Assembly: GCF_028292705.1 (NCBI RefSeq)
Contig: NZ_JAQGLV010000143.1
Location: forward strand, 1 to 33,966
Direction of reading: 5' to 3'
Origin: Collimonas fungivorans
GTDB taxonomy: Bacteria; Pseudomonadota; Gammaproteobacteria; Burkholderiales; Burkholderiaceae_D
DNA: 33,966 bases
The notes beneath the pieces were generated by a model, which had not been told where the DNA came from, made no database searches, and saw only the letters and a list, made by a program, of their open reading frames with translations. The stretch's first letter is position 1, and each line of letters opens with the position of its first letter. Shown here piece after piece: positions 6,027 through 23,557 of the stretch. Made by a program: the position numbers and the translations under genes.

Positions 6027-6518
6027 ATGGCAATTGACGTTTATCTGCAAATCGACGGCATCAAGGGCGAGTCGACGGACAGCGCGCACAAGGACTGGAT
6101 CGAGTGCAAATCGGTGCAATGGGAAGTGCTGCAGCCGAAGTCGGCGACTGCTTCGACCGGCGGCGGCCACACGGCCGAACGCTGTGAGCACAAGGACATC
6201 GTCGTGACCAAGATCGCCGATCTGGCTACGCCTCTGCTGCTGCAGAACTGCTCATCGGGCAAAACCATTCCGAAAGCCAAGTTCGAATTCCTGCGCGCCG
6301 ACGGCAAGGGCGACCGCATCAAGTACTTCGAAATCGAGCTGGTCAACCTGCTCATTTCCGATGTCACGCCATCGGTCCAGGAAGGCGATGTGCTGAGCGA
6401 AAGCATCAGCCTGAAGTACTCCCAGGTCAAATGGAAGTACACACAGCAAAAAATCGGCGGCGGTTCGGGCGGCAATACTTCCGGCGGCTGGGATCTGTCG
6501 ACCAACAAGGTCGTGTAA
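6027..6518 (+). CDS. hcp: Hcp (TssD) tube protein
   Basis: 163 residues, the expected size. Begins MAIDVYLQIDGIKGES, the typical Hcp start, and contains 'DWIECKSVQWEVLQPKS' and 'LRADGKGDRIKYFEIELVNLLISDV', with a C-terminal 'SLKYSQVKWKYTQQKI' strand followed by a Gly/Ser-rich tail. Hexameric rings stack into the inner tube and can carry small effectors. A strong ribosome binding site (AAGGGG) precedes the ATG, and the gene is followed immediately by an intrinsic terminator, both consistent with Hcp being made in excess over downstream baseplate proteins. Confidence 0.97.
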   Translation: MAIDVYLQIDGIKGESTDSAHKDWIECKSVQWEVLQPKSATASTGGGHTAERCEHKDIVVTKIADLATPLLLQNCSSGKTIPKAKFEFLRADGKGDRIKYFEIELVNLLISDVTPSVQEGDVLSESISLKYSQVKWKYTQQKIGGGSGGNTSGGWDLSTNKVV

Positions 6519-6534
6519 TTTTCTTGTGTTGAAC

Positions 6535-6564
6535 AAAGAGCCGCATGCTGCGGCTCTTTTTTTC
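6535..6564 (+). terminator. Intrinsic terminator between hcp and tssE
   Basis: AAAGAGCCGCA - TGC - TGCGGCTCTTT forms an 11-bp perfect stem with a 3-base loop and runs into seven consecutive T residues on the plus strand. It lies 17 bases after the hcp stop and 17 bases before the tssE start. As it sits within the operon, it probably reduces but does not abolish transcription of tssE-F-G-H, allowing high Hcp output; that effect is inferred. Confidence 0.9.
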
Positions 6565-6580
6565 TCCTGAATGGTAAGCG

Positions 6581-7072
6581 ATGAAAGGTTTCACTCCAGG
6601 ATTGTTTGACCGGTTGATGGGCGGCGACAACACGCCTGCACAATCCGATCTGGTAGTGCGATTGTCGATGGATGCCTTGAAAGACACGGTCGCTCGTGAC
6701 CTTGAGGCCATGCTCAATACGCGTACCGTGATTCCCGAAGAATTGCTGAAGAATTTCCCCGAATGCAGTAAGTCGATACTGACCTACGGCTTGAACGATT
6801 TTTCCGGCATGAGCCTGGCCAGCCTGGATGACCGGGCGCATATCTGCCAGTGCCTGGAACAGGGCATTGCGCGCCACGAGCCGCGCCTGAGGAATGTGCG
6901 CGCCTCACTCGAACTGCGCGAAGGATCGATCAACCGCTTGAATTTTGCGATTGCAGCCATGCTGGTGGTGGGGCCGGCCAAGGAAGCCGTGAGCTTCGAC
7001 GCCGTGCTGCAGCCGTCAACCTTGCAATATTCAATCAGCAGAGCACGCCGCGCGACGCGGATGGACGGTTAA
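6581..7072 (+). CDS. tssE: TssE (gp25-like) baseplate wedge protein
   Basis: 163 residues. The N-terminus 'FTPGLFDRLMG' and the gp25/lysozyme-like core ('ILTYGLNDFSGMSL', 'IARHEPRLRNVRASL') are characteristic of TssE; the E-P-R-L segment corresponds to the conserved E-x-R motif of gp25 proteins that initiates sheath polymerisation. The start follows a terminator by 17 bases, and tssF begins 1 base after the stop. No anomaly in length. Confidence 0.95.
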   Translation: MKGFTPGLFDRLMGGDNTPAQSDLVVRLSMDALKDTVARDLEAMLNTRTVIPEELLKNFPECSKSILTYGLNDFSGMSLASLDDRAHICQCLEQGIARHEPRLRNVRASLELREGSINRLNFAIAAMLVVGPAKEAVSFDAVLQPSTLQYSISRARRATRMDG

Positions 7073-7073
7073 C

Positions 7074-8918: not shown

Positions 8919-9964
8919 TCCAGCGCTTGCTGGACAAGCCGCATCGGTTCCAGTTTTTCCAGGCTGTGATGATGTTGGAGCTGTGGTTGAAACGCAACGG
9001 CATCCCGCATGAGGAGGCCGTCAGCGACTTCCTGCGTTTCCAGAACACCGTGTCGCTGAATTTTCCTCCGAGCGAAATCGAGGCGCTGGAGGTAAAGCCC
9101 AAGCTGACCGAACAAACGGTGGAAGCGCTGCTGGAAGCATTGCAGACCAACCAGCTCGACAGCATTGCGCTGACGCCGGCGTTCATCGGTTTTTTAGGCA
9201 GCAACGGCACTTTGCCCAGCCACTACTCGGAACGCATCGCCGCGCATCAGCTGTATGAAAAAGATCACGGGCCGCGCGCTTTCCTGGATGTCTTCTCGAA
9301 TCGCAGCGTAGCGCTTTTTTTCAAGGCCTGGCGCAAGTACCGGCTGGAATTCAAGTACCAGATCGACGGCACCGACAGTTTCCTGCCGCTGCTGATGTCG
9401 CTCGCCGGCCTCGGCCACCGCACTTTGCGCGACCGCATGTCGGAAGACGGCGCCGGCGTGCTGGACGAATCGATCGGGCATTTCGCCGCAGCCATCCGCC
9501 ATCGGCCGCCGTCGGCAGCGTACATGCAGCGGGTGTTGCGCGAATATTTTTCGGTGCCGATCACCATCGAGCAGTTTGTCGGCCACTGGTATAACGTGCC
9601 GGTCGACCAGCAAACCGTGCTGGGTTCCACCAACGCCCTGCTAGGCAGCGTGGCGATGGTGGGCGAGCGGGTATGGCAGCGCGATCTGCGCATGCGCCTG
9701 AAAATCGGCCCGCTGGCGAAGAAGAAGTTCGAGAGCTTTTTGCCGGGCGGCGCTGCCGCCATCGGCTTGCAAAAAATACTGGCGATGTTTACCAGCGTCT
9801 TCCTGGAGTATGAAATACAGCTGATCTTGCGCGCAGACCAGGTACAAAGCGTCAGCCTCGATTCCGACCGCGAAAGCGGACGGCTGGGCTGGGATACTTT
9901 TGTCACCAGCAAGCCGGAAGAAAGCGACCGCACCGATGTCTGTTACGAAATTCACTCACTTTGA
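8882..9964 (+). CDS. tssG: TssG baseplate wedge protein
   Basis: 360 residues, normal for TssG (VasB/ImpH). Diagnostic N-terminal block 'LLDKPHRFQFFQAVMMLE' and, later, 'TPAFIGFLGSNGTLPSHYSE', 'FLDVFSNRSVALFFKAWRKYR' and 'VGHWYNVP'. It binds TssF and TssE to form wedges on the VgrG hub. The ORF starts inside tssF (37-base overlap) with GAGGAG about 8 bases before the ATG, a good binding site within the upstream gene. tssH starts 24 bases after its stop. Confidence 0.95.
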   Translation: MLTAQRRFEPSVIQRLLDKPHRFQFFQAVMMLELWLKRNGIPHEEAVSDFLRFQNTVSLNFPPSEIEALEVKPKLTEQTVEALLEALQTNQLDSIALTPAFIGFLGSNGTLPSHYSERIAAHQLYEKDHGPRAFLDVFSNRSVALFFKAWRKYRLEFKYQIDGTDSFLPLLMSLAGLGHRTLRDRMSEDGAGVLDESIGHFAAAIRHRPPSAAYMQRVLREYFSVPITIEQFVGHWYNVPVDQQTVLGSTNALLGSVAMVGERVWQRDLRMRLKIGPLAKKKFESFLPGGAAAIGLQKILAMFTSVFLEYEIQLILRADQVQSVSLDSDRESGRLGWDTFVTSKPEESDRTDVCYEIHSL

Positions 9965-9988
9965 CCATGCATGGATGGGAAGGCTTCA

Positions 9989-12691
9989 ATGAGCATTAAT
10001 CTCAAAACCTTAATCAGCAAACTGAACGACACCTCGCGCCTGGCGGCGGAACGTGCGGCAAACATCTGCGTCGGCCGTGGCCAGTATGAAGTGGATATCG
10101 AACATCTGTTCCTGGCCTTGCTGGAACAGCCCAAGAGCGATTTTGCAGTGATTGCGCGCAAATCCGGCATCAGCCTCGCCGCGCTGGAAAGCGACCTGCA
10201 GGGCGAAATCGACCGTTTCAAGAACGGCAACGCGCGCACCCCGGTATTTTCACCGCACCTGCCCAAGCTGTTCGAACACGCCTGGCTGATCGCCTCGCTC
10301 GACAACCAGTCGGGACGGATCCGCAGCGGCCACCTGCTGCTGGCGCTGCTGACCGAACCGGACCTGGTGCAGCTGGCCTACCGCGGCTCCAAGCTGTTCA
10401 TCAAGTTCAAGCTGGACGATCTCAAGCATGACCTGGAAAAACTGACCGAAGGTTCGCAGGAAAGCACGACTGGGGAAGGCGGCATTGCCACGGCTGAAGA
10501 TGAAGGCGGCGATCCGGTGCAGGAACTGACCACCAAGGGCGAAGCCTCGAAAACCCCGTCGCTCGACAAATTCACCACCAACCTGACGCAGCGTGCGCGC
10601 GAAGGCAAGGTCGATCCGGTGATCGGCCGCGATACCGAAATCCGCCAGACCATCGACATCCTGATGCGGCGCCGCCAGAACAATCCTATCCTGACCGGCG
10701 AGGCCGGCGTCGGCAAGACCGCGGTGGTGGAAGGCCTGGCGCTGCGCATTGCGCAAAAAGACGTGCCTGACGTGCTGCAAGGCGTGGAACTGCATACTCT
10801 CGACATGGGCCTGCTGCAAGCCGGCGCCAGCGTCAAGGGCGAGTTTGAAAACCGCCTGAAAAGCGTGATCGACGAAGTCAAGAAAAGCTCGCACGCCATC
10901 ATCCTGTTCATCGACGAAGCCCACACCATGATCGGCGCCGGCGGCCAGGCTGGCCAGAACGACGCCGCCAACCTGCTGAAACCGGCGCTAGCGCGTGGCG
11001 AACTGCGCACCATCGCCGCCACCACCTGGAGCGAGTACAAGAAATACTTTGAAAAAGACGCCGCCCTGGCGCGCCGTTTCCAGGTAGTGAAAGTCGAAGA
11101 ACCAAGCGAAGAACTGGCTTGCGCCATGCTGCGCGGCATGGCGCCGCTGATGGAAAAACACTTCGGCGTGCGTGTCTTCGACGAAGCGATCACCGAGGCC
11201 GTGCGCCTGTCGCACCGCTATATCAGTGGCCGCCAGCTGCCCGACAAGGCGATCAGCGTGCTCGACACCGCCTGCGCCAAGGTCGCACTCGGCCAGAATG
11301 CAACGCCGGCCCTAATCGAGAACATCGTCAAAAAGCTGGATCGCCTGGTGGCCGAGCTGAATTCGCTGGAACGCGAATCGAACGCCGGCGGCAAGCATGC
11401 CGAACGCCTGAAGGAATTGCGCGAACTGCAAAACACATTGAATGCGGAACTAGCGATCCATCGCGAACGCTGGGAAAAGGAAAAAACCCTGACCGACCGC
11501 ATCAAGGCCGCCCGTACCGAACTGGAAGCGATCCCTGCTGCCGAACAAACCGCAGCGGAAGAAGGCGCCAAGCCTTCCAAGAAAGCCACCAAGGACAGCA
11601 AGGAAAACCAGGAACTGGCGAAGCTGATCGAGGAATTGAAAACGCTGCAAGGCGAAACGCCGATGGTGCCGGTGCAGGTCGACGGCCTGGTGGTAGCGGA
11701 AATCGTCGCCAGCTGGACCGGCATCCCGCTCGGCAAGATGGTCAAGGATGAAATCAAGACCGTGATCAATCTCGGCGCCCTGCTGCATGAACGCGTGCTG
11801 GGCCAGTCGCATGCGATCGAAGCGGTGGCGCAGCGTGTGCGCACTTCGCGCGCCAACCTGGACGATCCGAACAAACCGAAGGGCGTGTTCCTGTTCGTCG
11901 GCCCGTCCGGCGTCGGCAAGACCGAAACCGCGCTGGCGCTGGCCGACGTGCTGTACGGCGGCGAACGCAAGCTGATCACCATCAACATGAGCGAATACCA
12001 GGAAGCGCACAGCGTCTCCGGCCTGAAAGGCTCGCCGCCCGGTTATGTCGGCTACGGCGAAGGCGGCGTCCTGACCGAAGCGGTGCGGCGCAATCCGTAC
12101 AGCGTGGTGCTGCTGGACGAGGTGGAGAAGGCCCACCCGGATGTGCTCGAGCTGTTCTTCCAGGTATTCGACAAGGGCGTGCTGGACGACGCCGAAGGCC
12201 GCGAGATCGACTTCAAGAACACCATCATCATCCTCACCAGCAATGTCGCCTCCAGCCTGATCATGCAGAGCTGCCTGAACAAGGCGGCGGCGGAACTGCC
12301 GAGCACCGACGACCTGGAACAGGCAATCCGGCCGCAGCTGGTGAAGGCGTTCAAGCCGGCCTTCCTCGGTCGCCTCAAAGTCATTCCTTACTATCCGATT
12401 TCGGATGACGTGCTGGTCGAGATCATCAACCTCAAGCTGGGACGCATCCAGAAACGCATCGCCATCAACCACAAGGCCGAGTTCAGCTACGACGAACCGC
12501 TGGTGGAAGCGGTGCTGGCGCGCTGCACGGAAGTCGATTCCGGCGCCCGCAATGTCGACAATATCCTCAACGGCACGCTGTTGCCGGAAATTGCCGAAAC
12601 CGTGCTGGCCAAGATGGCCGAAGGCGGCAGCATCGCCAAGATCAAGGTCACTGCCAACAAGCAGGGTCAATTCAAATACGCGATCAAATAG
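9989..12691 (+). CDS. tssH: TssH (ClpV) sheath-disassembly AAA+ ATPase
   Basis: 900 residues from the ATG at 9989, which is better than the track start at 9971 because it has AAGG six bases upstream and begins MSINLKTLISKLND like other ClpV proteins. Domains in order: Clp-N repeat domain (about 1-150) that binds the exposed TssC helix; AAA-1 with Walker A GEAGVGKT near 237 and Walker B LFIDEAH; a coiled-coil middle domain (about 400-520, 'LDRLVAELNSLERES', 'LKELRELQNTLNAEL'); AAA-2 with Walker A GPSGVGKT near 638 and Walker B VVLLDEVEKAHP; and a C-terminal D2-small domain ending YAIK. It extracts contracted TssBC sheath for reuse in the cytoplasm. All catalytic motifs are intact. Confidence 0.97.
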   Translation: MSINLKTLISKLNDTSRLAAERAANICVGRGQYEVDIEHLFLALLEQPKSDFAVIARKSGISLAALESDLQGEIDRFKNGNARTPVFSPHLPKLFEHAWLIASLDNQSGRIRSGHLLLALLTEPDLVQLAYRGSKLFIKFKLDDLKHDLEKLTEGSQESTTGEGGIATAEDEGGDPVQELTTKGEASKTPSLDKFTTNLTQRAREGKVDPVIGRDTEIRQTIDILMRRRQNNPILTGEAGVGKTAVVEGLALRIAQKDVPDVLQGVELHTLDMGLLQAGASVKGEFENRLKSVIDEVKKSSHAIILFIDEAHTMIGAGGQAGQNDAANLLKPALARGELRTIAATTWSEYKKYFEKDAALARRFQVVKVEEPSEELACAMLRGMAPLMEKHFGVRVFDEAITEAVRLSHRYISGRQLPDKAISVLDTACAKVALGQNATPALIENIVKKLDRLVAELNSLERESNAGGKHAERLKELRELQNTLNAELAIHRERWEKEKTLTDRIKAARTELEAIPAAEQTAAEEGAKPSKKATKDSKENQELAKLIEELKTLQGETPMVPVQVDGLVVAEIVASWTGIPLGKMVKDEIKTVINLGALLHERVLGQSHAIEAVAQRVRTSRANLDDPNKPKGVFLFVGPSGVGKTETALALADVLYGGERKLITINMSEYQEAHSVSGLKGSPPGYVGYGEGGVLTEAVRRNPYSVVLLDEVEKAHPDVLELFFQVFDKGVLDDAEGREIDFKNTIIILTSNVASSLIMQSCLNKAAAELPSTDDLEQAIRPQLVKAFKPAFLGRLKVIPYYPISDDVLVEIINLKLGRIQKRIAINHKAEFSYDEPLVEAVLARCTEVDSGARNVDNILNGTLLPEIAETVLAKMAEGGSIAKIKVTANKQGQFKYAIK

Positions 12692-12703
12692 AACGGAGAG
12701 AAC

Positions 12704-13069
12704 ATGGATGCAGCAACCAAACAGAAAATCCTGAAGCAGTGCTACTCGAAGCGCTTCGACGAGAAATACAGCCGCAAATTCCAGTACCAGGACAAGGCGA
12801 CCGACGTGCGCAATTTCGTCAAGCTGACGCCGGCCGATATCATCGACCTGCTGGATACTCCGTCCGCGGCAGCCCGCTCACAGGCGCGCCGCCTGCTGCA
12901 GCTGATGCAGGGGCGGCCCTGGCTGCCGTCGGCGACGGCGCATGAGGGTGGGACCGGGGATCAGCGTGGGGTGGACAACAACCTGCACATTACACTGAGG
13001 ATACAAGAGACGAGCTATCACTTGCGTTGCAAGGAACAGCCTAGTTTGCACATTATCCAGATTACCTGA
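12704..13069 (+). CDS. Small unknown protein at the end of the tssB operon, possibly truncated
   Basis: 121 residues, starting 12 bases after tssH with a good GGAGAG ribosome binding site, so it is probably translated. The first 80 or so residues look like a genuine folded protein (charged N-terminus 'KQKILKQCYSKRFDEKYSRKF', then 'LTPADIIDLLDTPSAAARSQARRLLQL'). From about residue 82 ('HEGGTGDQRGVDNN...') the codons and amino-acid mix no longer resemble a conserved domain, the G+C drops, and the ORF ends 106 bases before the convergent immunity gene. This suggests the 3' part may be read-through into the boundary of the rhs module. I do not recognise the family. Its position suggests a T6SS accessory, but no function can be assigned. 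Confidence 0.55.
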   Translation: MDAATKQKILKQCYSKRFDEKYSRKFQYQDKATDVRNFVKLTPADIIDLLDTPSAAARSQARRLLQLMQGRPWLPSATAHEGGTGDQRGVDNNLHITLRIQETSYHLRCKEQPSLHIIQIT

Positions 13070-13175
13070 TCCTCGTATTGCACTGGCGAGCGCTGGATAA
13101 AAGTATGCGAGGCGGCGGGATTGTTACTGATAGTTTTCCCGACGCAATCGCTTATTTTTCGTCCGGCGCCACCGG

Positions 13176-14054
13176 TTAAATCTTGATCTCTTTGTAGGCG
13201 CCAAACCAAAATTTTAATGCGTCACGGTTTATGCCGTTTTTCCCAGTCCAGAAATCAACCGGATACGCCCAATCTGAGCTATGCGATTTACTCGGAGCAA
13301 GACCAGGATTGGTGTAATGCGTCAAATATCCTCTATGTTGTTCTGTCTCCAGGATGCTGCAAAATCCCAAAATCTCGAGCACATATTGACATTCGTCGGT
13401 AGTAGGTTTGAAGCCAGGAATTTTTTTCAGTTCTTTATGCGCATCTTTCGGTTTCAGGCCGTCATCCGCATGTTTCAGTATGTCGATGATTGCATTAAAG
13501 ATAGCAAAATCTGCGGCAGCAGGAGGGACGTCCTCGAGCTGGTGGTGCTGTTCCAGAAAAAACTGGATCTCGTAGGGCGTTTTATATCCGATCATCGAAC
13601 CGCATTTAAATCTTTGCTGATTCAAGCCGGTCAAATCCAGGCGATCCTTTACCTCTACAGCAGAGCATATCTTGCAGACATCGGCAGAACTCAGCTTGCA
13701 CACATGATCGGGCATCGTTTGCATGAATGCATAAGCGGACAGCCCGCTTCTATAATCCTGGCGCCCACTGCTGAAACTGGCTAAAAACAAATTGGTAACG
13801 TGCTTCTTCTTGCACAGCGCATAGTGTTCAAAACTTTTCCGTACCGCTTCATCATGGCCGATCTTGAGCGAATCAAATGCCAGGCCGTGCTGCTTCATGT
13901 AAGACACGTCGTCAGGCGAAGTACCGTTTTTCTCTACATATTCTTGTTGACGGGCATTGAGCGGATATCCTCGTGCTTCATAGCCAGCGGCCAGCACATC
14001 GTACTTCAGGAGAATTTTTAATGCACGTGCGTCAATAAGATTTTTATTCAGCAT
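13176..14054 (-). CDS. Putative immunity protein of the Rhs toxin (unrecognised family)
   Basis: 292 residues, no signal peptide or membrane segment, so cytoplasmic. Its ATG overlaps the rhs stop by 7 bases (TGC TGA shares ATGCTGA), the usual arrangement for a cognate immunity gene directly behind a polymorphic toxin tip. No known immunity family is recognisable to me. Visible features are a CKLSSADVCKICSA cluster and another Cys in 'RFKCGSMIGYKTPYE', a Glu/His/Pro stretch 'QFFLEQHHQLEDVPP', and a Trp-rich end ('SDWAYPVDFWTG', 'LKFWFGAYKE'). G+C is well below the neighbours (25 of 60 bases in 13561-13620), as is common for recently exchanged toxin/immunity pairs. The size is large for an immunity protein, so an accessory or second-effector role is an alternative. 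Confidence 0.65.
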   Translation of the reverse strand: MLNKNLIDARALKILLKYDVLAAGYEARGYPLNARQQEYVEKNGTSPDDVSYMKQHGLAFDSLKIGHDEAVRKSFEHYALCKKKHVTNLFLASFSSGRQDYRSGLSAYAFMQTMPDHVCKLSSADVCKICSAVEVKDRLDLTGLNQQRFKCGSMIGYKTPYEIQFFLEQHHQLEDVPPAAADFAIFNAIIDILKHADDGLKPKDAHKELKKIPGFKPTTDECQYVLEILGFCSILETEQHRGYLTHYTNPGLAPSKSHSSDWAYPVDFWTGKNGINRDALKFWFGAYKEIKI

Positions 14055-14452
14055 TTTATTTTGTAATCCTTTCCTTTTAATGTGGTTCCAGTCATTTCGC
14101 TCGGGCTCTTGCCTTTCAAGAAATCTTCCCCGGCTTCCATTTTTATGGTCGCTCTTTTTGATTTAGGGTTAACGCCTTCGATTGCGTTGCCACGTACTTT
14201 GCCGCCATTCGTCTTTTTCCGGCCGATGACCCCGGTTTCCTGAACCGCTACGCCTTCCACACCTTGAGCCGTCAATTTTGGCGTGCCTGGCTTGGTAATT
14301 TGCGTCATGGTGTCGCCTGAACCAAACCGCGCACCGTCAGTGCCCACGTTATTCCCATGTCTGCGCGCGACATCAGCCATTGACTGCTTATCGCTGGCGC
14401 GTCCATGGTAATAGACATCGCCATCGGAATTTGTAAGATGATAGTTCCAATC
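14048..14452 (-). other. Toxin tip of Rhs: predicted GIY-YIG/URI-type nuclease domain
   Basis: The last 134 residues (about 1330-1463) follow the Rhs cleavage region. A beta hairpin 'YHLTNSDGDVYYHGRASD' matches the GIY-YIG arrangement (Y...VYY.GR), then 'MADVARRHG' supplies the helix Arg and His, 'VEGVAVQETGVIG' a Glu on a later helix or strand, and 'GGKVRGNAIEGVNPKSKR' the terminal Asn motif, the same order seen in URI-type nuclease tips of other Rhs and polymorphic toxins. The region is rich in Lys and Gly and its G+C is lower than the Rhs shell. The predicted activity is DNA cleavage in the target cell. The assignment rests on motif reading only; an unrelated small fold cannot be excluded. 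Confidence 0.55.
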
Positions 14453-17400
14453 CCATCCCAACGGGTCAATCCAGCGATTCGGGTTAGGTGCGTACTGGTA
14501 CAGGTTGTTGCCGCCATCCAGTCCGATCGGATCCTTTCCGACAAATTGCCCGATATACGGGTCGTAATATCGATACCGGTTGTAATGCAATCCTGTTTCT
14601 ACATCATGGTATTGGCCCTGGAACCTGATCGGGTTATCGATCTCCCCTGCGTGCAGCTGCCGTACCTCGCCCCATGCTGCGTAGCTAGCCGACCACACAA
14701 TTTCCCCGTATTTATCGGTCAACCTTGTCGGACAGCCATTGGGATCGTTGTGATAATAAAAGACGGCGCCAGAAGTTTCGTCAGCCGCCGCCACCGTCTC
14801 GACCTTGCTGATCTCCGGGAGGCCGCTCAGCGCCGCACCGGATAGAGATGCATTGGCAGCACCGCCGATCAGTATTCCCATCCCCAATCCCATCGGGCTG
14901 ACAGGCCGAACCGTTCTTGCTGTCGCCTCAGTTTGTCCATCGATCAGCGCCAGCGGCGCAAATGTAGCCGGATAATAGACATATTCCCGTGCCCGGGCAT
15001 GCATTGTTTTCAGCGCCGCCAGCCGCTTACGCGCCGCCATGAAATCAGCCACATTGCCGGCTGACCAAATGTCAGCATGGTTCTTGGCATTGCTGGCCTG
15101 ATGCACTTCTCCCAGCAAGATATCGCCATCCCAGAAAAACCAGGTGGTGCGAGCCGGGCTACGTTTGAATACCCGCCGGCCAAGCGGGTCGTAGCCGTAG
15201 CGAGTCACCTGGCCGCCTTTGCTGCTTTCGATCAGGCGTTGATCGGCGTCCCATCTGAGTTGCGTGGCCGGCTCGGTGGTGGATTGCTCTGCCGGCGGTT
15301 GGCTGCTGTTGCGCCGGACCAGGTTGCCGGCACGATCGAATATGTAGTGGTTGCCCTCATAGCTGCCTTCGCGGCTCCATAGGACATCGGCGAGGCCTTC
15401 AGCGCCCGCCGCCTGCTTCACTTCGGCTAGATGGATCCGGGTGCGCAAGCGATCGCCAGTCGGATCGCTGAGAAAATCCGTAATGCGGCCGGCAGGGTCG
15501 ATATGGCGCAGAATATTGCCCAACGGGTCATAGTGATACAGATCACTGCCATGCTCGCTATCGTTGCGCCGCGTTTGATTTCCCGCGCTGTCGTAATCGT
15601 AGCTGGTGGCAAATAGAGGCGCCTGGTCCCACAACACGGTTTGGGCTGTGAGGTGACCTTCCGTGTCATAACGCAGCTGACGCTGAAGACTGCCGCTCAA
15701 TTGCTCCTTGATGGAGCGTCCAAGCGCATCGCGCTCGATCAAGATCGGCGTCGCGTCGTTAATCACGATAGCGGTCGCCTGGTCGCGTAAATCGAAGCGG
15801 GCAACAACCTTGTTGCCTGCGCCGGTTTGTCGCGACACCCGGTTGCCCGCCTCGTCGTAGCCGTATTCAACCTGAAACCCGTCTTGCATTTCTCCGCCAA
15901 GACGACCGTCGGCGTCGAATTTGCGCAGCACATGCCGATGCGAATTGCGGATTTCGACCAGATTGCCGTTCTTGTCGTAACTGAAGATTTCCTGCACATG
16001 CTGTCCGGGACTATCGGAATCGGGCAAGATTTTCTTTGTGATGCGGCCCAGCCGATCAGTAACATAGGTGACGACGCGGCCCAGAGGATCGGTGGCGCTT
16101 GCCAGGCTGCCGCCAGGATCGTAACAATAACGGCGTGATTGCTGCCAATAATCACATTCTTCAATGATGCGGCCCAAGGCGTCGCGCTTGAGCTGGTAGT
16201 GCTCCTTGCGCTGGTTTACCAGGCCGATCAGTTGTTCCTCGGTATTGTAAAGATATTCCACGATGTGGCCGTCAGCCAGTGCGCGCTTGGCGACCTGGCC
16301 GGTGCCGAAGTACTCGACCCTGGTCAGGGCGCCGTTTTGATCTGCATAAGCGGTCAGCCGATCTTCCGCATCATAGTCGCAGCGGGTGCTGGCTCCGTCG
16401 GCCTGGCGAGTCTGCAGCAGACGTCCTTTGGCGTCATAGCGATATTCGGTGACAGCTCCGCTGGCATCGGTATGGCGTGTCAGGTCGCCCAGCGCGTCAT
16501 ATTCGAAATGGCTGCGATGACCAAGCGGGTCCGTCAGCTGCGATATATTGCCGTAGCGATCGTAAACCAGCCCAGTGACAGCTCCGCGCGGGTTGACGTG
16601 GGTTTGCAATTGCCCGTGGGCATCGTAGGTAAATCGCGAGCGCGCTCCCATAGGCGTGCTTTGCTCCAGCATCCGGCCCCTTTCGTCCCAGACGCGCCGC
16701 CAAGGATGGCCAAGCGAGTCAACCACCAAAGTCATACGATTGGCGTCGTCGAACTCCATGCTGATCACGCTACCGTCTGCCTGCAGCAATTTCAACAGGT
16801 TTCCGCGTTCGTCATATTCAAATTCCGTACGCGATCCGACCGGATCCGATACCGCAGTGGTGCGCCCTACCTCGTCATATTCAAAGCTCGTAACGCCACC
16901 TAAAGGATCGATTTCGCAAAGAGGCAGGTGGTCCTCATCGAACTTGATCAGCGAAGTATGGCCCAGCGAATCGGTGACTTCTGTTTCGCGCAATACGGCG
17001 TTGTACCCAAACCGGTAGTCATGCAATCCGTGGTCGCCCCAGGCATGCACTACACGCCATTCACTGTCATAAGCATAATAGAAGGACAGTCCCAGCCGGT
17101 CGGCGTGGCGCACCATGTGATGGCGGTCGTAGTCGAAGGTGCGGGGGGCATCGAGTGCGTCGAATTCAGCGATCAGATCCTGATTCTGGTATTTGTAAGT
17201 ACTCAGCGGGTGGTTCAGGCCGGTAGCCGGGTCGTGCAGACTTAGCTGATGAATTTTGCCGGCGGATTCATGTACTTCGATAAAACGGCCTGGCATGGCG
17301 CCGATGCCATTCTCTATGATTCGGGTCAGATGCCCTTCAACGCGCTCGAATCGCCAGTGATTGCCGCACAAGTCTTCGATTCTCTCGATCTGCAAATGCA

Positions 17401-18439
17401 GGACTTGATGCTGTGGCGCGATATCGGGCGCCGGCATGCGGAAGACATAACGCAAATCGCCCTTGGTCAGGACCTGCAGCTCGGCAATTTCGTCAGTTTG
17501 AATCCAGGCTAACCGCGCGCCATCGACAAATTCGGTCACAGCGTGCTCAGCACCAGCGGCTTCTGGCAGTTGCGGAAATACTGCAGCCCCGTTGGCTTCG
17601 AAAAACAGTACCATGCCATCCGCTTCGATTTCCAATCGGAAATCCGCGGGCGTCTGCCAGCCGTAACCGCACATGCCGTCGTAGCTATTGCCCGATGAAT
17701 AATCGCGACTCCAGATCAACGGCAAGCGTCCTGATATGGAAAAATCTTCTTGCGAAACCGCTACGCTGCCATCGCGGATATCGACCGGCTCGGCATGCAA
17801 TATCTTGCATTTCAAGAAACCGGAATCCATATTCTTGAACAGTTTCTGCCGTGCCTCCTTGAACATTGCTGCCGCACGCTTATACCCCTTTGTCCCGCGC
17901 AACGCCTTGAATCCTTTGCCAAGAGCCGCCAGTCCCAGCCTGGACGCAATCGCCATCAAGGAAATCGTCGGCGGCCCGCCGACAAACACGCTGTCGGGTA
18001 TCGCCAGGTTGACCGAAGTCGGCAAGGTCATCGACAAATGCGGCTTGGACGGTTTCTTCAGCCGGAACGGGGGCACCATGCCGACCACACTGCAATCGAG
18101 CACCGGCATGCCCAGGCGCGAGAACGGCGAGTCGTCGGCCAGCACTGTCTTGCTGCCCATGAACAGCTCGTCGTCGAACTGCGGACCGCCGGGGGCGCGC
18201 AAGGGCGGCACCCATATCGCCAGCGGAATATGCACCGACAAGCCGCCGGTTCCTGCCGTGGCGCGCTTGACGCCGGCTACCTGCACTGTCGCGCCGATAA
18301 AAGGCAGGTAATCGAAAGGATCGAGCACCATCGAGATATGCGCGGTCGGCAGCGGCACCGGCGGCGTGCCGGGCACCAGTACGTACATGTGGATATCGAT
18401 GCCGATCTGGGGGTCGAAATGCTTGGCAGCGTTGGTCAT
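14048..18439 (-). CDS. rhs: PAAR-like Rhs effector with C-terminal GIY-YIG-like nuclease tip
   Basis: 1463 residues. Order of parts: an N-terminal PAAR-like region (about 1-190: 'DPQIGIDIHMYVLVPGTPPVP', 'FDDELFMGSKTVLADDSPFS', 'MPVLDCSVVG') without an obvious transmembrane pair; the start of the Rhs shell ('LKCKILHAEPVDIRDGSV', 'GRLPLIWSRDYSSGNSYDG'); many YD/RHS repeats ('YDEVGRTTAVSDPVG', 'RYGYDPLGRRVFKR'); the core end 'RYRYYDPYIGQFVGKDPIG' and 'NLYQYAPNPNRWIDPLGW'. DPIG (about 1303) and DPLG (about 1325) are separated by exactly 18 residues, the DPxG-X18-DPxG pattern of the Rhs autoproteolytic site. After it comes a 134-residue tip. The Rhs cage encloses the toxin, and the PAAR-like domain would cap VgrG, delivering it into rival cells. 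It is the third gene of the vgrG-TPR-rhs-imm operon, 13 bases behind the TPR gene. Confidence 0.93.
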   Translation of the reverse strand: MTNAAKHFDPQIGIDIHMYVLVPGTPPVPLPTAHISMVLDPFDYLPFIGATVQVAGVKRATAGTGGLSVHIPLAIWVPPLRAPGGPQFDDELFMGSKTVLADDSPFSRLGMPVLDCSVVGMVPPFRLKKPSKPHLSMTLPTSVNLAIPDSVFVGGPPTISLMAIASRLGLAALGKGFKALRGTKGYKRAAAMFKEARQKLFKNMDSGFLKCKILHAEPVDIRDGSVAVSQEDFSISGRLPLIWSRDYSSGNSYDGMCGYGWQTPADFRLEIEADGMVLFFEANGAAVFPQLPEAAGAEHAVTEFVDGARLAWIQTDEIAELQVLTKGDLRYVFRMPAPDIAPQHQVLHLQIERIEDLCGNHWRFERVEGHLTRIIENGIGAMPGRFIEVHESAGKIHQLSLHDPATGLNHPLSTYKYQNQDLIAEFDALDAPRTFDYDRHHMVRHADRLGLSFYYAYDSEWRVVHAWGDHGLHDYRFGYNAVLRETEVTDSLGHTSLIKFDEDHLPLCEIDPLGGVTSFEYDEVGRTTAVSDPVGSRTEFEYDERGNLLKLLQADGSVISMEFDDANRMTLVVDSLGHPWRRVWDERGRMLEQSTPMGARSRFTYDAHGQLQTHVNPRGAVTGLVYDRYGNISQLTDPLGHRSHFEYDALGDLTRHTDASGAVTEYRYDAKGRLLQTRQADGASTRCDYDAEDRLTAYADQNGALTRVEYFGTGQVAKRALADGHIVEYLYNTEEQLIGLVNQRKEHYQLKRDALGRIIEECDYWQQSRRYCYDPGGSLASATDPLGRVVTYVTDRLGRITKKILPDSDSPGQHVQEIFSYDKNGNLVEIRNSHRHVLRKFDADGRLGGEMQDGFQVEYGYDEAGNRVSRQTGAGNKVVARFDLRDQATAIVINDATPILIERDALGRSIKEQLSGSLQRQLRYDTEGHLTAQTVLWDQAPLFATSYDYDSAGNQTRRNDSEHGSDLYHYDPLGNILRHIDPAGRITDFLSDPTGDRLRTRIHLAEVKQAAGAEGLADVLWSREGSYEGNHYIFDRAGNLVRRNSSQPPAEQSTTEPATQLRWDADQRLIESSKGGQVTRYGYDPLGRRVFKRSPARTTWFFWDGDILLGEVHQASNAKNHADIWSAGNVADFMAARKRLAALKTMHARAREYVYYPATFAPLALIDGQTEATARTVRPVSPMGLGMGILIGGAANASLSGAALSGLPEISKVETVAAADETSGAVFYYHNDPNGCPTRLTDKYGEIVWSASYAAWGEVRQLHAGEIDNPIRFQGQYHDVETGLHYNRYRYYDPYIGQFVGKDPIGLDGGNNLYQYAPNPNRWIDPLGWDWNYHLTNSDGDVYYHGRASDKQSMADVARRHGNNVGTDGARFGSGDTMTQITKPGTPKLTAQGVEGVAVQETGVIGRKKTNGGKVRGNAIEGVNPKSKRATIKMEAGEDFLKGKSPSEMTGTTLKGKDYKIKC

Positions 18440-18452
18440 GGACGCTTCCTTT

Positions 18453-20099
18453 TCAGGCGGTCGCGGCGGCGCTTATCGGCGCTTTGGCGGCTGCGTTTGA
18501 ATTGGCCGAGGCGGCGTCGATCACACCGGCCGGGTCTGGCAATTTGGTGAACTGCGGCGGCTCGCTCCATTCCGGGACATCCTTGTCGAGCGGATGCTTG
18601 ACTTCGGGCAGGCCGTTCCAGAGCGGATTGAGCAGTTCGCGCGCCAGCGCCACCACTTTGCGGAAGAATTCGTCGCCGCCGGCGATCAGGTGTTCGCGTT
18701 CCTGGCGCTGGCGCTGGAAACTGCTTTCGAAACGCGCGTGCATGGCGGTTTCTATCTTTTCCAGGTCGGCCGGCGCCGGCTGCTCGCCCAGCTTGCCGGC
18801 CTGCTGTTCGGCATGCAAGTGGGCAGCGGCGACGGCGGCCTGGTAATCGGCCGCGCTGCGCTCCAGCTTTTCGGTGCGCCCCGGGTCTTGCAGACGCAAC
18901 AGATCCTGCAAGGCCAGCGACATGGTGGTGAGCGGGCGCTCGGCCGGAGCAACCGCTTTTGCGGCGCGCAGCGCCAGGGCGCCGTGCTCGCGCGCCGGTT
19001 TTTCCTGCCGGGCTTGCGCATAACTGTAGGCGGCCATGCGGAAACCTTCGATTTCAAACATGGGATTGGGCACGCGCTGCGCCTGCTCCGCGGCGCTGCG
19101 ATAGGCTTGTGCCGCTTTTTCCGGCTGCTTCGCCACCAGCCATACGCCGGCTTCGCCAAACCAGGTTTGCATGATCAGGTCGGCAGCCATCGGATGTTTG
19201 TCCTGTTCCGCCTGCACGGCGCACTCACGGGCATCGCGATAACGCTTGATGGCGTCGACGTAGTTCTTTTCTTTTACATAAGCGCCAGCCACCGCCATCT
19301 GCAGCACTACCTGCTGGTCCGGCCATTGTTCGCGCCGGGCGATCTGCATGGCTTTTTCGGCGCGCGCGGCGGTTTGCGCGGCGCTGCCTTTTTCGACCAG
19401 GGTGATGACATCGGTGAGCAGCTGGCGGTAGGCCACCGTCGGACCGGAGCCGCCGGACTGCGCCACCGTTTCGCGGGCGATGTCGAACATGTCGATCGGC
19501 GCTTCCACTACGCGCACGCTAGCGCCGTGGCGCTGCGCCAGCGTCTGCCAGCGTTTGTCGGACAAGGTATCGACCAATGTCAGGCGCACCCCGGCGCCAT
19601 CCGCGGCCAAGCCGGGGCTGCGCAGCGCCGCATCCAGCCAGGCTTCCCAAGCATCCTGGCTGATCACGCCGTTCGGCGCCAGCACCGCGTTCACATAACG
19701 CAAGTGCGGCAGCTGCGCCTTGTGATGCTGCGCAAACGAAGACAGCATGGCCATGACGCCGGAAGCCGAATCGTGGAGCGGCAGTTGGGAAAACGGCCAG
19801 TCTGCCGTTACCCCTTGCTCGCGCAGGCTGTCCTTGCTGTCGACATAGCTGTCGGCCAGCGCCTGGCGCAATGCATGGCTGTAGCCGAAGCCGGTGTCGA
19901 ACGGCGCATCGAAGCGCAGGAACAGGTCCGGCGTGGTCCAGTCGCCGGGATGCTGCTGCATCTCGAAAAACGCTTGCAGCATGCGGTCGGCATTATCGGG
20001 AATGCGCCACACCAGCAGCCGCACCTGCGGATCCTCGGTGTGCTCCAGCCACAAGTCGCGCAGGGTCTCGACGCGCTTTTCGACAGGATTCTTCGCCAT
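18453..20099 (-). CDS. TPR-repeat protein between vgrG and rhs, candidate Rhs adaptor
   Basis: 548 residues, no signal peptide, so cytoplasmic. The N-terminal third is a distinct domain ('VRLLVWRIPDNADRMLQAFFEMQQHPGDW', 'DLFLRFDAPFDTGFGYSHALRQAL', 'HLRYVNAVLAPNGVISQDAWEAWL', 'GVRLTLVDT'). The middle (about 230-420) is a run of TPR-like helix pairs ('AAQTAARAEKAMQIARREQW', 'AGAYVKEKNYVDAIKRYRDA', 'GVWLVAKQPEKAAQAYRSAAEQA', 'AAYSYAQARQEKPAREHGALAL'). The end is a helical 'RQRQEREHLIAGGDEFFRKVVAL' segment and an Ala-rich tail. It occupies the slot where other vgrG-rhs operons encode Eag (DUF1795), DUF4123 or DUF2169 adaptors, none of which it resembles to my eye. Spacing to both neighbours is short (23 and 13 bases). 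An adaptor that holds the PAAR-like N-terminus of Rhs and docks it on VgrG is the most economical hypothesis. Confidence 0.8.
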   Translation of the reverse strand: MAKNPVEKRVETLRDLWLEHTEDPQVRLLVWRIPDNADRMLQAFFEMQQHPGDWTTPDLFLRFDAPFDTGFGYSHALRQALADSYVDSKDSLREQGVTADWPFSQLPLHDSASGVMAMLSSFAQHHKAQLPHLRYVNAVLAPNGVISQDAWEAWLDAALRSPGLAADGAGVRLTLVDTLSDKRWQTLAQRHGASVRVVEAPIDMFDIARETVAQSGGSGPTVAYRQLLTDVITLVEKGSAAQTAARAEKAMQIARREQWPDQQVVLQMAVAGAYVKEKNYVDAIKRYRDARECAVQAEQDKHPMAADLIMQTWFGEAGVWLVAKQPEKAAQAYRSAAEQAQRVPNPMFEIEGFRMAAYSYAQARQEKPAREHGALALRAAKAVAPAERPLTTMSLALQDLLRLQDPGRTEKLERSAADYQAAVAAAHLHAEQQAGKLGEQPAPADLEKIETAMHARFESSFQRQRQEREHLIAGGDEFFRKVVALARELLNPLWNGLPEVKHPLDKDVPEWSEPPQFTKLPDPAGVIDAASANSNAAAKAPISAAATA

Positions 20100-20122
20100 G
20101 TTCGCGTCCTTTCAATAAGGTC

Positions 20123-22366
20123 TCAGCTGTTCAGGTTGATCTTGCTGCCGTTGATCGACACGCCGCCGCCATTGATCTTGATGATTGAGCCGCCGGCGGT
20201 GATGGTGATTTCGCCGGCATTGATGCTGATGCCGGCGCCGCCGACCACCAGATCGACCTGGCTGCCGGAAGCAATGGTCTGGTCGGAGCCGGAATACACC
20301 GTGTGGGTGCCGGACACCTCATGCTGCATGTTGCCGGTCACTGACAGCAAGCGCGCCCCTGTATTGCCGTCTTCCACCGGGCCGGTCACGGTACGCTTGT
20401 CGGTGCCGGTCACCGTCACTTCGCGGCCGGCATGCATGGTGTCGCTGACCGCGCCGGTGATGGTGCGGGTGGCGGTGCCGGTGATGTCGCGCTTCCAGTT
20501 GCCGCTGGTGCTGCCGCTATAGTTGCCGACCAGGGTGCTGCCGTAGTCGCCGGTGATGTTTTCGTTATAACCGGCGGCGGTGATGGTGCGTTTCTGGCCC
20601 GCCTGGTAGGTCTGCGTCACCGCGCCGGTCACCGTGGCGGTGGAGGTGCCGGTGATGGTGCGGGTATCGTTGCCGGTGACCGTTGCGCCGCGGTTGCCGC
20701 CCACCGAAATATCCTGGTTGGCGCCGACATTCAGGCTGTGGTTGACGGCAACCTTGGTCGCCTTGTTGTTCTTGACGGTGCTGTTATGGTCGTTCAGCAC
20801 CGTCACCGCCATGTCGCGCTGGGCATGCATGTTGAGCAGCTCGCTGCCGCCGGTGTCGTGCATGGTGACTTCATTGAAGCCGCCGCCGCGCACCGTCTTG
20901 GAGCGCATGCCGCTGACTTCCTGGCCGAACGGCGGCATGTTGTCGGCGTTGTAGACGCGGCCGGTGATGATAGGCCGGTCCGGATTGCCGTCGAGGAAAT
21001 CAACCACCACTTCCTGCCCGACGCGCGGCGCCGAAACCCCGCCCATGCCGCTGCCGGCCCAGGGGCTGGCGACCCGTACCCAGCAAGAGCTCTGGTCATT
21101 GAACTGGCCCAGCCGGTCCCAGTGGAACTGCAATTTCACGCGGCCGTATTTGTCGTGCCAGATCTCCTCGCCTTTCGGTCCCACCACGGTCGCCGTCTGT
21201 GGCCCGGGCATGCGCGGCCTGGCGGTCTCGCGCAAGGGCCGGTAGGGAATCTTGCGGCGCAAGGCGCTGACCTCGACCCGGTACATGCAATCCTGGGCTT
21301 CACTGAAATCGCTGGAGAAGTTGTTGCGGGCATCGTGCTTGACCTGCAGCGCCATGAAGCGATGTTCGGTCTGGTCGTCGTCCTCATGCTCGAAATGGCC
21401 GCTGAGGTCGAAATAGCGGCCGATCGCCAGCACCCGGGTGGTGCCGGCGCCCTCAAACACCTTGGTCTGCCAGCCGGCTTCCTCGGCGCGCACCGCGGTC
21501 AGCTGTTCGCCGACCGAACTGTTGCCGTAACTGGCGGCGCCATCGTAAGCATAGTGCTCGAATTGCGGCAGGGTGCCGCGCGGCGCATCGTTCTTCAGTT
21601 CGACCGCGAGGGGATTGCGCGGCTGCTTGAAATCGAAGCTCTTGATGCTGTGCACCGAGGGCCCGACCCGGCGCCGCGGCCGCCAGTCGTCCAGCACGTC
21701 GCTGGCCTGCAATTCCTGGTTGGGCTGGAAACGCACGGTGGCGTCGCCTTCCAGCGGCTGGCACTGGGTGGTATCGTCGGCCAGCACCAGCTTGTGGCCG
21801 CTCTCGCTGTGCTCGAAGCTGTAGTAGATGCCGGCATCTTCCAGCAGGCGCGACACAAACGTGAAGTCGGATTCGTTGTACTGCACGCAGTACGGCAGTT
21901 TTGGATAGCGGCCGGCAACCAGGTCGAAGCGGTAGTCGGCCAGCTGGCCGTATTTGCTGAATACTTCCTGTGCGATATCGAGCACCGACAGGTCCTGGAA
22001 CACGCGGCAGTTGCTGGCGTAGTCGAGGAAGGAAAACCATGGCGCCAGCTGCGCCTGGTAAGTGGCCAGGCCGCCGTCGCTGCCGGTGCGGCTGAATTCC
22101 TTCACGAAACCATGGAAATGGCGCTCGTCGCCGGCGGTCTGCATGGTCAGCAGCACCGGCTGCCCGACCAGCTGCTTGAGTTCAAGCTGGTCGTAGGGCG
22201 ACAGCAATTCCAGCGTCAGCTGGTACGGCTTGGATAAGGCTTCGCTGCCGTGCATCCGGTGCACCAGCAGCAGGTCGGCATCCAATGGAGTCTTGATCCG
22301 GACCAGGCGCCGGTCCTGGTTGAAGCGGCCCACCCGGGCCAGCATTGCAGAAGGGTTTGGATACAT
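20123..22366 (-). CDS. vgrG: VgrG (TssI) spike protein heading the rhs effector operon
   Basis: 747 residues from the ATG at 22366; the track ATG at 22372 leaves only one or two bases after GGAG, while the second ATG is 7 bases from it. gp27-like hub domain: 'LLLVHRMHGSEALSKPYQLTLELLS', 'FHGFVKEFSRTGSDGG', 'YCVQYNESDFTFVSRLLEDAGIYYSF' (the DUF2345/VgrG core signature). gp5 OB-fold: 'IWHDKYGRVKLQFHWDRLG' and 'SSCWVRVASPWAGSGMGG', 'VGQEVVVDFLDGNPDRPIITGRVYN'. C-terminal needle: 'RTVRGGGFNEVTMHDTGGSE'-like 'KTVRGGGFNEVTMHDTGG' then a long Thr/Gly repeat region ending in 'ITITAGGSIIKINGGG'. No enzymatic extension is evident. It would be tipped by the PAAR-like domain of the Rhs protein encoded two genes downstream. 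Confidence 0.95.
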   Translation of the reverse strand: MYPNPSAMLARVGRFNQDRRLVRIKTPLDADLLLVHRMHGSEALSKPYQLTLELLSPYDQLELKQLVGQPVLLTMQTAGDERHFHGFVKEFSRTGSDGGLATYQAQLAPWFSFLDYASNCRVFQDLSVLDIAQEVFSKYGQLADYRFDLVAGRYPKLPYCVQYNESDFTFVSRLLEDAGIYYSFEHSESGHKLVLADDTTQCQPLEGDATVRFQPNQELQASDVLDDWRPRRRVGPSVHSIKSFDFKQPRNPLAVELKNDAPRGTLPQFEHYAYDGAASYGNSSVGEQLTAVRAEEAGWQTKVFEGAGTTRVLAIGRYFDLSGHFEHEDDDQTEHRFMALQVKHDARNNFSSDFSEAQDCMYRVEVSALRRKIPYRPLRETARPRMPGPQTATVVGPKGEEIWHDKYGRVKLQFHWDRLGQFNDQSSCWVRVASPWAGSGMGGVSAPRVGQEVVVDFLDGNPDRPIITGRVYNADNMPPFGQEVSGMRSKTVRGGGFNEVTMHDTGGSELLNMHAQRDMAVTVLNDHNSTVKNNKATKVAVNHSLNVGANQDISVGGNRGATVTGNDTRTITGTSTATVTGAVTQTYQAGQKRTITAAGYNENITGDYGSTLVGNYSGSTSGNWKRDITGTATRTITGAVSDTMHAGREVTVTGTDKRTVTGPVEDGNTGARLLSVTGNMQHEVSGTHTVYSGSDQTIASGSQVDLVVGGAGISINAGEITITAGGSIIKINGGGVSINGSKINLNS
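20381..20690 (-). repeat. Degenerate TG-x-x-T repeats encoding the VgrG beta-helix needle
   Basis: Within vgrG the codons for short Thr/Val/Gly units (TITG, TVTG, TGTSTATVTGAV, TGTATRTITGAV, TGTDKRTVTGPV) recur, giving reiterated GCCGGT / ACCGTC blocks at the DNA level. Two of the units, TGTSTATVTGAVTQT and TGTATRTITGAVSDT, are near copies about 55 residues apart. The protein pattern suits a three-sided beta-helix. Boundaries are approximate. Confidence 0.6.
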
Positions 22367-22500
22367 TGGCATTCTCCGTTTTGCAAAAGGAATGGCTTTG
22401 CATAGAGCAGCTGTTTAAGCCACGGTCCTGGGTGAGGACGTCGACTTTGCCTGTTATAACTGATGGAACGAATATGCGGCAGCAATATTGCCGATCTGAA

Positions 22501-22662: not shown

Positions 22663-23214
22663 TTATTGCAAAGACCCGAAAGGCTTGCCCTCGCCGCCGG
22701 CATCCGGCGTAGCGGTTTTGGCAGCGCGCGTGGCCTTTTTCTTCAGCGGACGGCTCACCTTAGGCTTGGTTTCGGCCACTGCGGCCGGATCGACCACGGT
22801 TTCACCCAGGCTCTCGCGCAGCAGTTTTGTCTGGCTCTGGGCATCGCTGAGCACGCCGCCGTTCAAGTCGCTTTGCGCGCTCAAGTCGTTCAGGGCCTTG
22901 ATCGACAGCTTGAGGCTGCCCAACGCCACCACGCCTTTGGCGTACTTGTCGGCCGGATCGCGTTGCAATACCTGCAATGCATAGGCCACCGCATCGCCGT
23001 AGCTACCGGCGTCGTATTTGATCTGGGTCATGCGCACCCATGGCGTTTTTTCGGTCGGACGGGCCTGCGCTACGTCCTTGAGCACCTGGATTTCCTGGTC
23101 GGCCGCACTTTTCTGTGCCGCATCTGCAGCGGCGGGAGCAGCCGACGCAGCGAATGGAATCATCAAACATGTTAAAGCGACACTGCAAACCAACTTGGTT
23201 TTCCAAAGCTTCAT
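22663..23214 (-). CDS. Periplasmic TPR-like protein, paralogue of the tssB-operon lipoprotein
   Basis: 183 residues from the ATG at 23214. The track start at 23283 adds 23 residues that look unnatural, whereas MKLWKTKLVCSVALTCL aligns residue for residue with MSQWKSKFIYGVALACL of the protein at 3338-3937; a GTG four codons upstream, right behind AGGAAA, is an alternative. Shared blocks are KTPWVR, YGDA-YAL, LQRDP-DK, ALNDL--Q-DLNG, LRESLGETV and the final PFGSLQ. Unlike its paralogue it has no lipobox: the signal peptide ends AASA-AP, fitting signal peptidase I, so it should be soluble in the periplasm. The C-terminal linker is Lys/Arg/Pro-rich ('RPLKKKATRAAKTA') instead of Ala-rich. It sits divergent to tssA, which ties it to the T6SS. 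Its role is unknown; a partner or regulator of the lipoprotein version is inference. Confidence 0.82.
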   Translation of the reverse strand: MKLWKTKLVCSVALTCLMIPFAASAAPAAADAAQKSAADQEIQVLKDVAQARPTEKTPWVRMTQIKYDAGSYGDAVAYALQVLQRDPADKYAKGVVALGSLKLSIKALNDLSAQSDLNGGVLSDAQSQTKLLRESLGETVVDPAAVAETKPKVSRPLKKKATRAAKTATPDAGGEGKPFGSLQ

Positions 23215-23557
23215 AGCTTTACTCACTTTCCTGAAAATATTAAGACCTGGACAGGCACAACGCAGCCATTGCAAATATAACAATCGCCGCGCCAGACATC
23301 AACTGCCGCAAATGCCGGATATCGACGCTTTTTTAGAGATGCATTCAGGACACATGTTACTACGGAAACATCTCCTTTGACATTTCGACATATCCGTCCG
23401 GCATCGCCGATGCCGGGTTTGCGCCACATTCCGGGTGCAACTTAGATTCCTTTTTTGAAACGCTAGGGTATGATTGTGCCAAGGAAATTCTGATGAATAT
23501 CTCGCAAGAGCGTCGCCGCTTGCCGGCTTGAATCACTTTTATTTGGATTTGTCATTT
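23215..23557. promoter_or_regulatory. Divergent region between the periplasmic TPR gene and tssA
   Basis: 343 bases without a credible gene. It must hold the promoters for both divergent genes. The clearest structure is a perfect 9-bp inverted repeat CCGGCATCG-C-CGATGCCGG at 23398-23416, which has no T tract and could be an operator or an RNA hairpin about 140 bases before tssA. A TATGAT near 23467-23472 is a possible -10 for tssA, but no matching -35 is present. No sigma-54 consensus seen. Confidence 0.45.

What the first reader, a model, noticed from the sequence alone, without database searches (positions are those of the whole stretch)
18453..20099. TPR protein in the adaptor slot of a vgrG-rhs operon
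Between vgrG and rhs lies a 548-residue protein with a distinct N-terminal domain and a central TPR array, where Eag (DUF1795), DUF4123 or DUF2169 adaptors are normally found. The Rhs N-terminus lacks an obvious transmembrane pair, the feature Eag chaperones bind, so a different loading factor is expected. This could be a little-described adaptor class for PAAR-like Rhs effectors.
Basis: partly seen in the sequence, partly recalled or inferred. Interest (0 to 1): 0.7.

Follow-up and report, generated by a model that had tools for sequence, protein, structure and literature searches.

The report
TPR chaperone for Rhs spike-tip effectors
The gene between the spike gene vgrG and the giant toxin gene rhs belongs to an unnamed family of helper proteins that is almost always found beside one particular kind of Rhs toxin, in soil bacteria, in gut Bacteroidales and in many others, so it most likely loads that toxin onto the bacterium's molecular spear.

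Summary
Confirmed. The 548-aa ORF (minus strand) is real, under purifying selection, and lies in a tight vgrG–TPR–rhs–immunity operon inside a Collimonas T6SS cluster. It matches no Pfam, NCBIfam, PHROG, PADLOC or PDB family above cut-off, and none of the known adaptor families (DUF1795/Eag, DUF4123, DUF2169). It defines an undescribed family: an N-terminal ~220-aa alpha/beta-like domain, a 4–5-repeat TPR array, and an optional ~140-aa C-terminal extension. Homologues from some two dozen genera of Pseudomonadota and Bacteroidota, including gut-Bacteroidales T6SSs, lie beside vgrG and/or an rhs with the same PAAR-like N-terminus. The link is reciprocal: in one 295-genome sample, 19 genomes have the TPR gene and 20 the Rhs N-terminus, sharing 19; the extra one is cut by a contig end. 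TPR stays conserved when toxin tip and immunity gene are exchanged, so it serves the Rhs delivery half, not the toxin. Long TPR proteins pair with insert-free Rhs tips, short ones with insert-bearing tips. Best reading: a dedicated chaperone/adaptor seating this tip on VgrG, analogous to DUF2169 for PIPY tips. Binding and loading are inferred. A 2026 paper labels a same-sized, same-position Stenotrophomonas protein "Tap6" adaptor, untested.

The parts
18453..20099 (-). TPR adaptor/chaperone candidate, 548 aa, 60.6 kDa (P0001)
19440..20099 (-). its N-terminal domain, residues 1-220, unknown alpha/beta-like fold, NPxE-R...W motif, no P-loop
18885..19439 (-). TPR array, residues 221-405 (4-5 helix pairs)
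18453..18884 (-). C-terminal extension, residues 406-548, present only in the long form
20123..22372 (-). vgrG (TssI spike, 749 aa); no Pfam domain beyond the gp5-like spike was found at its C-terminus
20107..20112 (-). Shine-Dalgarno AAAGGA of the TPR gene
18447..18452 (-). Shine-Dalgarno AAAGGA of rhs, directly after the TPR stop codon
14048..18439 (-). rhs effector, 1463 aa (DUF6531, RHS repeats, Rhs_assc_core)
17804..18439 (-). PAAR-like N-terminal domain of Rhs (residues 1-212), P-x-x-H-I and FMGSKTV..D..PFSR motifs, without the insert
14048..14455 (-). variable C-terminal toxin tip (residues 1329-1463), shared only with the closest relative
13176..14054 (-). putative immunity gene (292 aa), no family match, travels with the toxin tip

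Best explanation
The protein is a cytoplasmic loading chaperone/adaptor dedicated to one class of Rhs effector. Its conserved N-terminal plus TPR core recognises the PAAR-like N-terminal tip domain of the Rhs, keeps it soluble, and seats it on the end of the cognate VgrG trimer, so that a VgrG-tip-Rhs spike can enter the baseplate. It is then probably shed before firing, as Eag, Tec/Tap and DUF2169 proteins are thought to be. Shown here: the gene, the family, the strict and reciprocal genetic linkage, independence from toxin and immunity, and the pairing of long and short TPR forms with two tip architectures. Inferred: physical binding, stabilisation, and release before firing.
For: (1) Linkage: every confirmed homologue with readable flanks lies beside vgrG and/or an rhs with the same N-terminus, in Collimonas, Lysobacter, Variovorax, Burkholderia, Paraburkholderia, Caballeronia, an unnamed gammaproteobacterial family (14 genera), Tenacibaculum, Bernardetia and gut Bacteroidales. 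(2) Reciprocity: in the same 295 genomes, TPR in 19 and the Rhs N-terminus in 20, sharing 19; the twentieth match ends at a contig end. In 300 Burkholderiales the strong hits are the same three genomes. (3) TPR and Rhs core are kept while toxin tip and immunity gene are exchanged: among 41 loci only the closest relative shares them, and L077 has TPR 95% but no tip or immunity match. (4) Form coupling: long TPR (516-549 aa) with insert-free tips (205-214 aa), short TPR (421-456 aa) with insert-bearing tips (228-295 aa); one mixed case, Variovorax. (5) No DUF1795 in the genome and no TM pair in the Rhs. (6) TPRs commonly bind protein partners; class II T3SS chaperones are a precedent (family knowledge). 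(7) DUF2169 chaperones show the same strict VgrG/PAAR-like co-occurrence and are required for delivery (PMC11883445; PMC13373197).
Against: No direct evidence of binding or loading. The Rhs N-terminus reaches PAAR only below significance (4JIV_D, E 0.14), does not match DUF4150 by profile-profile, and its AlphaFold model failed (pLDDT 31). The N-terminal TPR-protein domain was modelled poorly. Tight operons are co-inherited, so linkage and tree similarity do not prove contact; partial distance correlations were not stable between subsets. The long/short pairing may reflect few evolutionary events. One orphan Rhs of this type (Eleftheria, L085) has neither vgrG nor the TPR gene beside it.
Confidence: 0.74

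Rival explanations
1. It is a spike or baseplate assembly factor acting mainly on VgrG, required for every firing of this VgrG, like the TvpAB/TvpB helpers, rather than an effector chaperone.
For: The TPR gene directly follows vgrG and its divergence tracks VgrG as well as the Rhs N-terminus (r 0.87 and 0.90); Tvp helpers support VgrG-PAAR assembly as such (PMC13373197).
Against: It occurs only where this Rhs N-terminus occurs; its two length forms follow the Rhs tip architecture.
Confidence: 0.14
2. It is a secreted structural partner or co-effector that leaves the cell with the VgrG-Rhs tip, like VP1388 or the RIX secreted adaptors.
For: Secreted co-effectors and adaptors exist (cited in PMC10433429 and PMC12135965). 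The S. rhizophila look-alike Tap6 was detected as a protein, but in whole cells.
Against: No toxin or enzymatic domain and no P-loop; known adaptors of this position are reported as not secreted (PMC10433429).
Confidence: 0.08
3. It is an immunity protein or a regulator (a Rap-like TPR) and its place between vgrG and rhs is incidental.
For: TPR proteins include Rap-type regulators; weak Rap/NprR profile hits.
Against: Conserved while toxin tip and immunity gene are exchanged; a separate small gene follows rhs; same slot in two phyla.
Confidence: 0.04

Closest known systems
DUF2169 / TvpA chaperones of DUF4150 (PIPY) tips (PMC11883445, PMC13373197)
   Same: Gene adjacent to vgrG and a non-canonical PAAR-like tip, strict near 1:1 co-occurrence, proposed shielding of the tip.
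   Different: No DUF2169 match; partner domain is not DUF4150 by Pfam or hhalign; TPR architecture; also present in Bacteroidota T6SS loci.
EagR/EagT (DUF1795) chaperones
   Same: Operon position upstream of an Rhs effector with an N-terminal tip domain.
   Different: No DUF1795 domain, 548 aa with TPRs, and the Rhs has no TM pair for it to shield.
Tec/Tap (DUF4123) adaptors
   Same: Slot between vgrG and effector.
   Different: No DUF4123 match; no extra C-terminal domain was found in the VgrG; the genome's DUF4123 protein lies on another contig.
Tap6 of Stenotrophomonas rhizophila (WP_181406191.1, PMC13340143)
   Same: 59.5 kDa 'hypothetical protein' between vgrG6 (81.7 kDa) and paar-rhs-tse6; the values here are 60.6 and 81.8 kDa. 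Probably the same family.
   Different: Its sequence could not be fetched here, so homology is inferred from size and position; called an adaptor there without a functional test.
Class II T3SS chaperones (LcrH/SycD)
   Same: TPR-based export chaperones; weak NCBIfam echo (E 0.029).
   Different: Far below the family cut-off (14 of 105 bits), other secretion system, only in the TPR part.

Membership tests
Eag chaperones (DUF1795, PF08786) | DUF1795 domain | tested here: not met
   no match in P0001 or 24 relatives; no DUF1795 in the own genome
Eag chaperones (DUF1795, PF08786) | partner effector with N-terminal transmembrane segments | tested here: not met
   no hydrophobic window in P0002; few, marginal ones in relatives
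Tec/Tap adaptors (DUF4123, PF13503) | DUF4123 domain | tested here: not met
   the genome's only DUF4123 is on contig C113
DUF2169 / TvpA chaperones | DUF2169 domain | tested here: not met
DUF2169 / TvpA chaperones | partner tip is a DUF4150 (PIPY) domain | tested here: not met
   no PF13665 match in the Rhs N-termini or own genome; hhalign probability 1%
DUF2169 / TvpA chaperones | strict co-occurrence with vgrG and a PAAR-like tip (a works-like feature) | tested here: met
T6SS loading chaperone/adaptor (functional class) | required for effector stability or secretion and binds effector or VgrG | not testable with these tools
   needs deletion, secretion and pull-down assays; no complex prediction tool
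TPR proteins | tandem TPR helix pairs | tested here: met
   in P0001 itself below the Pfam cut-off
PAAR-like tip (Rhs N-terminus) | PAAR-type fold or profile | tested here: inconclusive
   only PDB match of profile A8 is PAAR 4JIV_D at E 0.14; one of 16 relatives matches PAAR_motif at E 0.024; model failed
Tap6 family of S. rhizophila | sequence homology | not tested

The most novel reading that the evidence does not exclude
The TPR protein and the Rhs N-terminus form a third, previously unrecognised spike-tip/chaperone pair, beside PAAR-Eag and PIPY-DUF2169, shared by proteobacterial T6SSs and the Bacteroidota T6SSs; in it the C-terminal extension of the chaperone and the insert of the tip domain are alternative solutions to the same assembly problem.
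Probability: 0.5. Interest if true: 0.75.

Novelty: new variant of a known kind. Interest (0 to 1): 0.62.

Why it matters
Only a few T6SS loading-factor families are recognised, and they serve as markers for finding effectors. This one has no database family, reaches T6SSs of gut Bacteroidales (whose loading factors I did not find described), and gives a ready probe for PAAR-like Rhs effectors that existing markers miss. The family, its partner domain and the long/short coupling make clear predictions that a single deletion strain could test.

Tried and rejected
Known adaptor families by Pfam, NCBIfam, PHROGs and PADLOC: no match. Phage, IMG/VR and E. coli collections: no relatives. Weak hits L015, L016, L026, L027 (TPR) and L120, L121 (Rhs N-terminus) are short, partial stretches and were dropped. 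Rhs N-terminus AlphaFold model: unusable. hhalign of the Rhs N-terminus with DUF4150: not significant. N-terminal TPR-protein domain against the PDB: only sub-threshold Rab GTPase and methyltransferase hits over an alpha/beta stretch (E 0.1-1); treated as a hint of a Rossmann-like fold without a P-loop, not as a result. Mirror-tree partial correlations: suggestive over all loci but not stable within long or short forms, so not used as evidence of contact. An automatic count of the long/short coupling (Fisher p 8e-6) misread a few rows (extension cut-off, one regex miss); the lengths and the alignments are the reliable version. Apparent exceptions to the reciprocal test (G1207, G1093) proved to be a contig end and a gene interrupted beside a Mu-like prophage.

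Full report
WHAT IS THERE. The window is a contig of a Collimonas-like genome (G000:C177; homologues at 82-97% come from its own genus, and the named ones are Collimonas) that carries a T6SS cluster: TssK, TssJ, TssB, TssC, Hcp, TssG, ClpV, TssA, an OmpA/BON protein, TagF and TssM (ClpV named from its sequence). Between clpV and tssA lies a minus-strand module: vgrG 22372-20123, the TPR gene 20099-18453, rhs 18439-14048 and a small gene 14054-13176. Gaps are 23 bp, 13 bp and an overlap of 7 bp, and each of the TPR and rhs starts has an AAAGGA site 7 nt upstream. The finding's coordinates are right; the strand is minus.

IS IT A GENE. The frame is intact at 82-97% identity in eight of 14 other genomes of the genus, with dN/dS 0.08-0.12.

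DOMAINS. Nothing above cut-off in Pfam, NCBIfam, PHROGs or PADLOC. Nine of 25 relatives match Pfam TPR models (best 6e-6), the family profile finds designed TPR proteins in the PDB (3.9e-5), and AlphaFold gives confident helix pairs over residues 222-405 whose best Foldseek matches are TPR domains. Residues 1-220 were modelled poorly; the profile's only PDB echoes are sub-threshold, and there is no P-loop. Residues 406-548 are an extension found only in some members.

THE FAMILY. Homologues occur in Lysobacter (57-59%), Variovorax (43%), Burkholderia, Paraburkholderia and Caballeronia (about 27-30%), an unnamed gammaproteobacterial family (19 of 295 genomes, 14 genera), Tenacibaculum (about 22%), Bernardetia (profile E 3.5e-27), and Bacteroides, Parabacteroides and Phocaeicola T6SS loci. 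It is rare: 3 strong hits among 300 Burkholderiales and 4 genomes of 398 across the phylum.

LINKAGE. Every confirmed homologue with readable flanks follows a vgrG and/or precedes an rhs. In Caballeronia (L022) no vgrG was found upstream; in L073 the rhs is interrupted after about 26 codons beside a Mu-like prophage. In Bacteroidota an Imm17 gene may stand between TPR and rhs. The Rhs partners share one N-terminal domain (alignment A4), marked by a P-x-P-H-like and an F-M-G-S-x-T-V-x-x-D-G-x-P motif. The reverse search with this domain finds the same genomes: 20 of 295 against 19 for TPR, sharing 19, with the odd one ending at a contig end; the three strong Burkholderiales genomes coincide; among 11 plasmid records, nine have the TPR gene in the same replicon or module, one is a 1.8 kb fragment and one is an orphan rhs in Eleftheria without vgrG.

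WHAT IT SERVES. TPR and Rhs core are retained in the compared loci, but the toxin tip (residues 1329-1463) and the downstream gene are shared only with the nearest relative. Locus L077 has a 95%-identical TPR protein, a 70%-identical Rhs core and neither the tip nor the immunity gene. The TPR protein therefore goes with the Rhs delivery half, not with the toxin or immunity. Long TPR proteins (516-549 aa) pair with insert-free Rhs tips (205-214 aa) and short ones (421-456 aa) with tips carrying an insert (228-295 aa), in Burkholderiales as well as in the unnamed family, where several genomes carry two copies of the TPR gene; Variovorax alone is mixed. This is what a fitted pair would look like, though it may reflect few events.

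IS THE PARTNER A PAAR-LIKE TIP. The insert-free profile (A8) has one PDB match at E up to 5, the PAAR protein of 4JIV, at E 0.14, over the G-S-x-T-V-x-x-D-G-x-P motif and in two registers. One relative matches PAAR_motif at 0.024. It is not DUF4150. Coyne et al. annotated the Rhs proteins of Bacteroidales GA1/GA2 loci as PAAR-Rhs (PMC4714493). I call it PAAR-like with that caveat.

MECHANISM. Best reading: a cytoplasmic chaperone/adaptor that holds the PAAR-like tip and seats it on VgrG, by analogy with DUF2169 and PIPY tips, where strict co-occurrence was matched by genetic and biochemical need (PMC11883445; PMC13373197). Shown: gene, family, reciprocal linkage, independence from toxin and immunity, form pairing. 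Inferred: binding, stabilising, shedding.

NOVELTY. Reviews list DUF4123, DUF1795 and DUF2169, with DUF2875 and PRK06147 as further candidates (PMC10433429; PMC11925235); none is this family. In the held library the only trace is Tap6 of S. rhizophila (PMC13340143): a 59.5-kDa hypothetical protein between an 81.7-kDa VgrG6 and PAAR-Rhs-Tse6, detected in the whole-cell proteome and called an adaptor without a test. It is probably a member. Coyne's TagA or TagB of GA1/GA2 loci could be another name, but this could not be checked. Papers outside the open library may describe it.

Noticed in passing
window 14048-14455 and 13176-14054 (-): Toxin tip of ~135 aa and its putative 292-aa immunity protein match no family; both are shared only with one close relative.
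   Followed up: partly
window 3338-3937 (+): A second, unrelated TPR protein (199 aa, TPR_14 above cut-off) stands upstream of tssB in the T6SS cluster.
   Followed up: no
window 22663-23283 (-): Small ORF between vgrG and tssA with a possible signal sequence and helical repeats; no significant family match.
   Followed up: no
L073 and L116 (G1093): An rhs of this type is interrupted after about 26 codons beside Mu-like prophage genes, its two parts lying on different contigs.
   Followed up: partly
L022 (Caballeronia) 6200-8120 and 14895-15173: Many copies of a short repeat (read as SKLPTRQRT) upstream of the TPR gene where vgrG would be expected, and a second fragment matching the TPR family after rhs.
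   Followed up: no
L085 (Eleftheria terrae) 9001-13116: Orphan rhs with the same N-terminal domain but no vgrG or TPR gene beside it; where its loading factor is encoded is unknown.
   Followed up: no
L020 10355-10606 and L029 16340-16627 (Bacteroidota): An immunity-17 family gene sits between the TPR gene and rhs.
   Followed up: no
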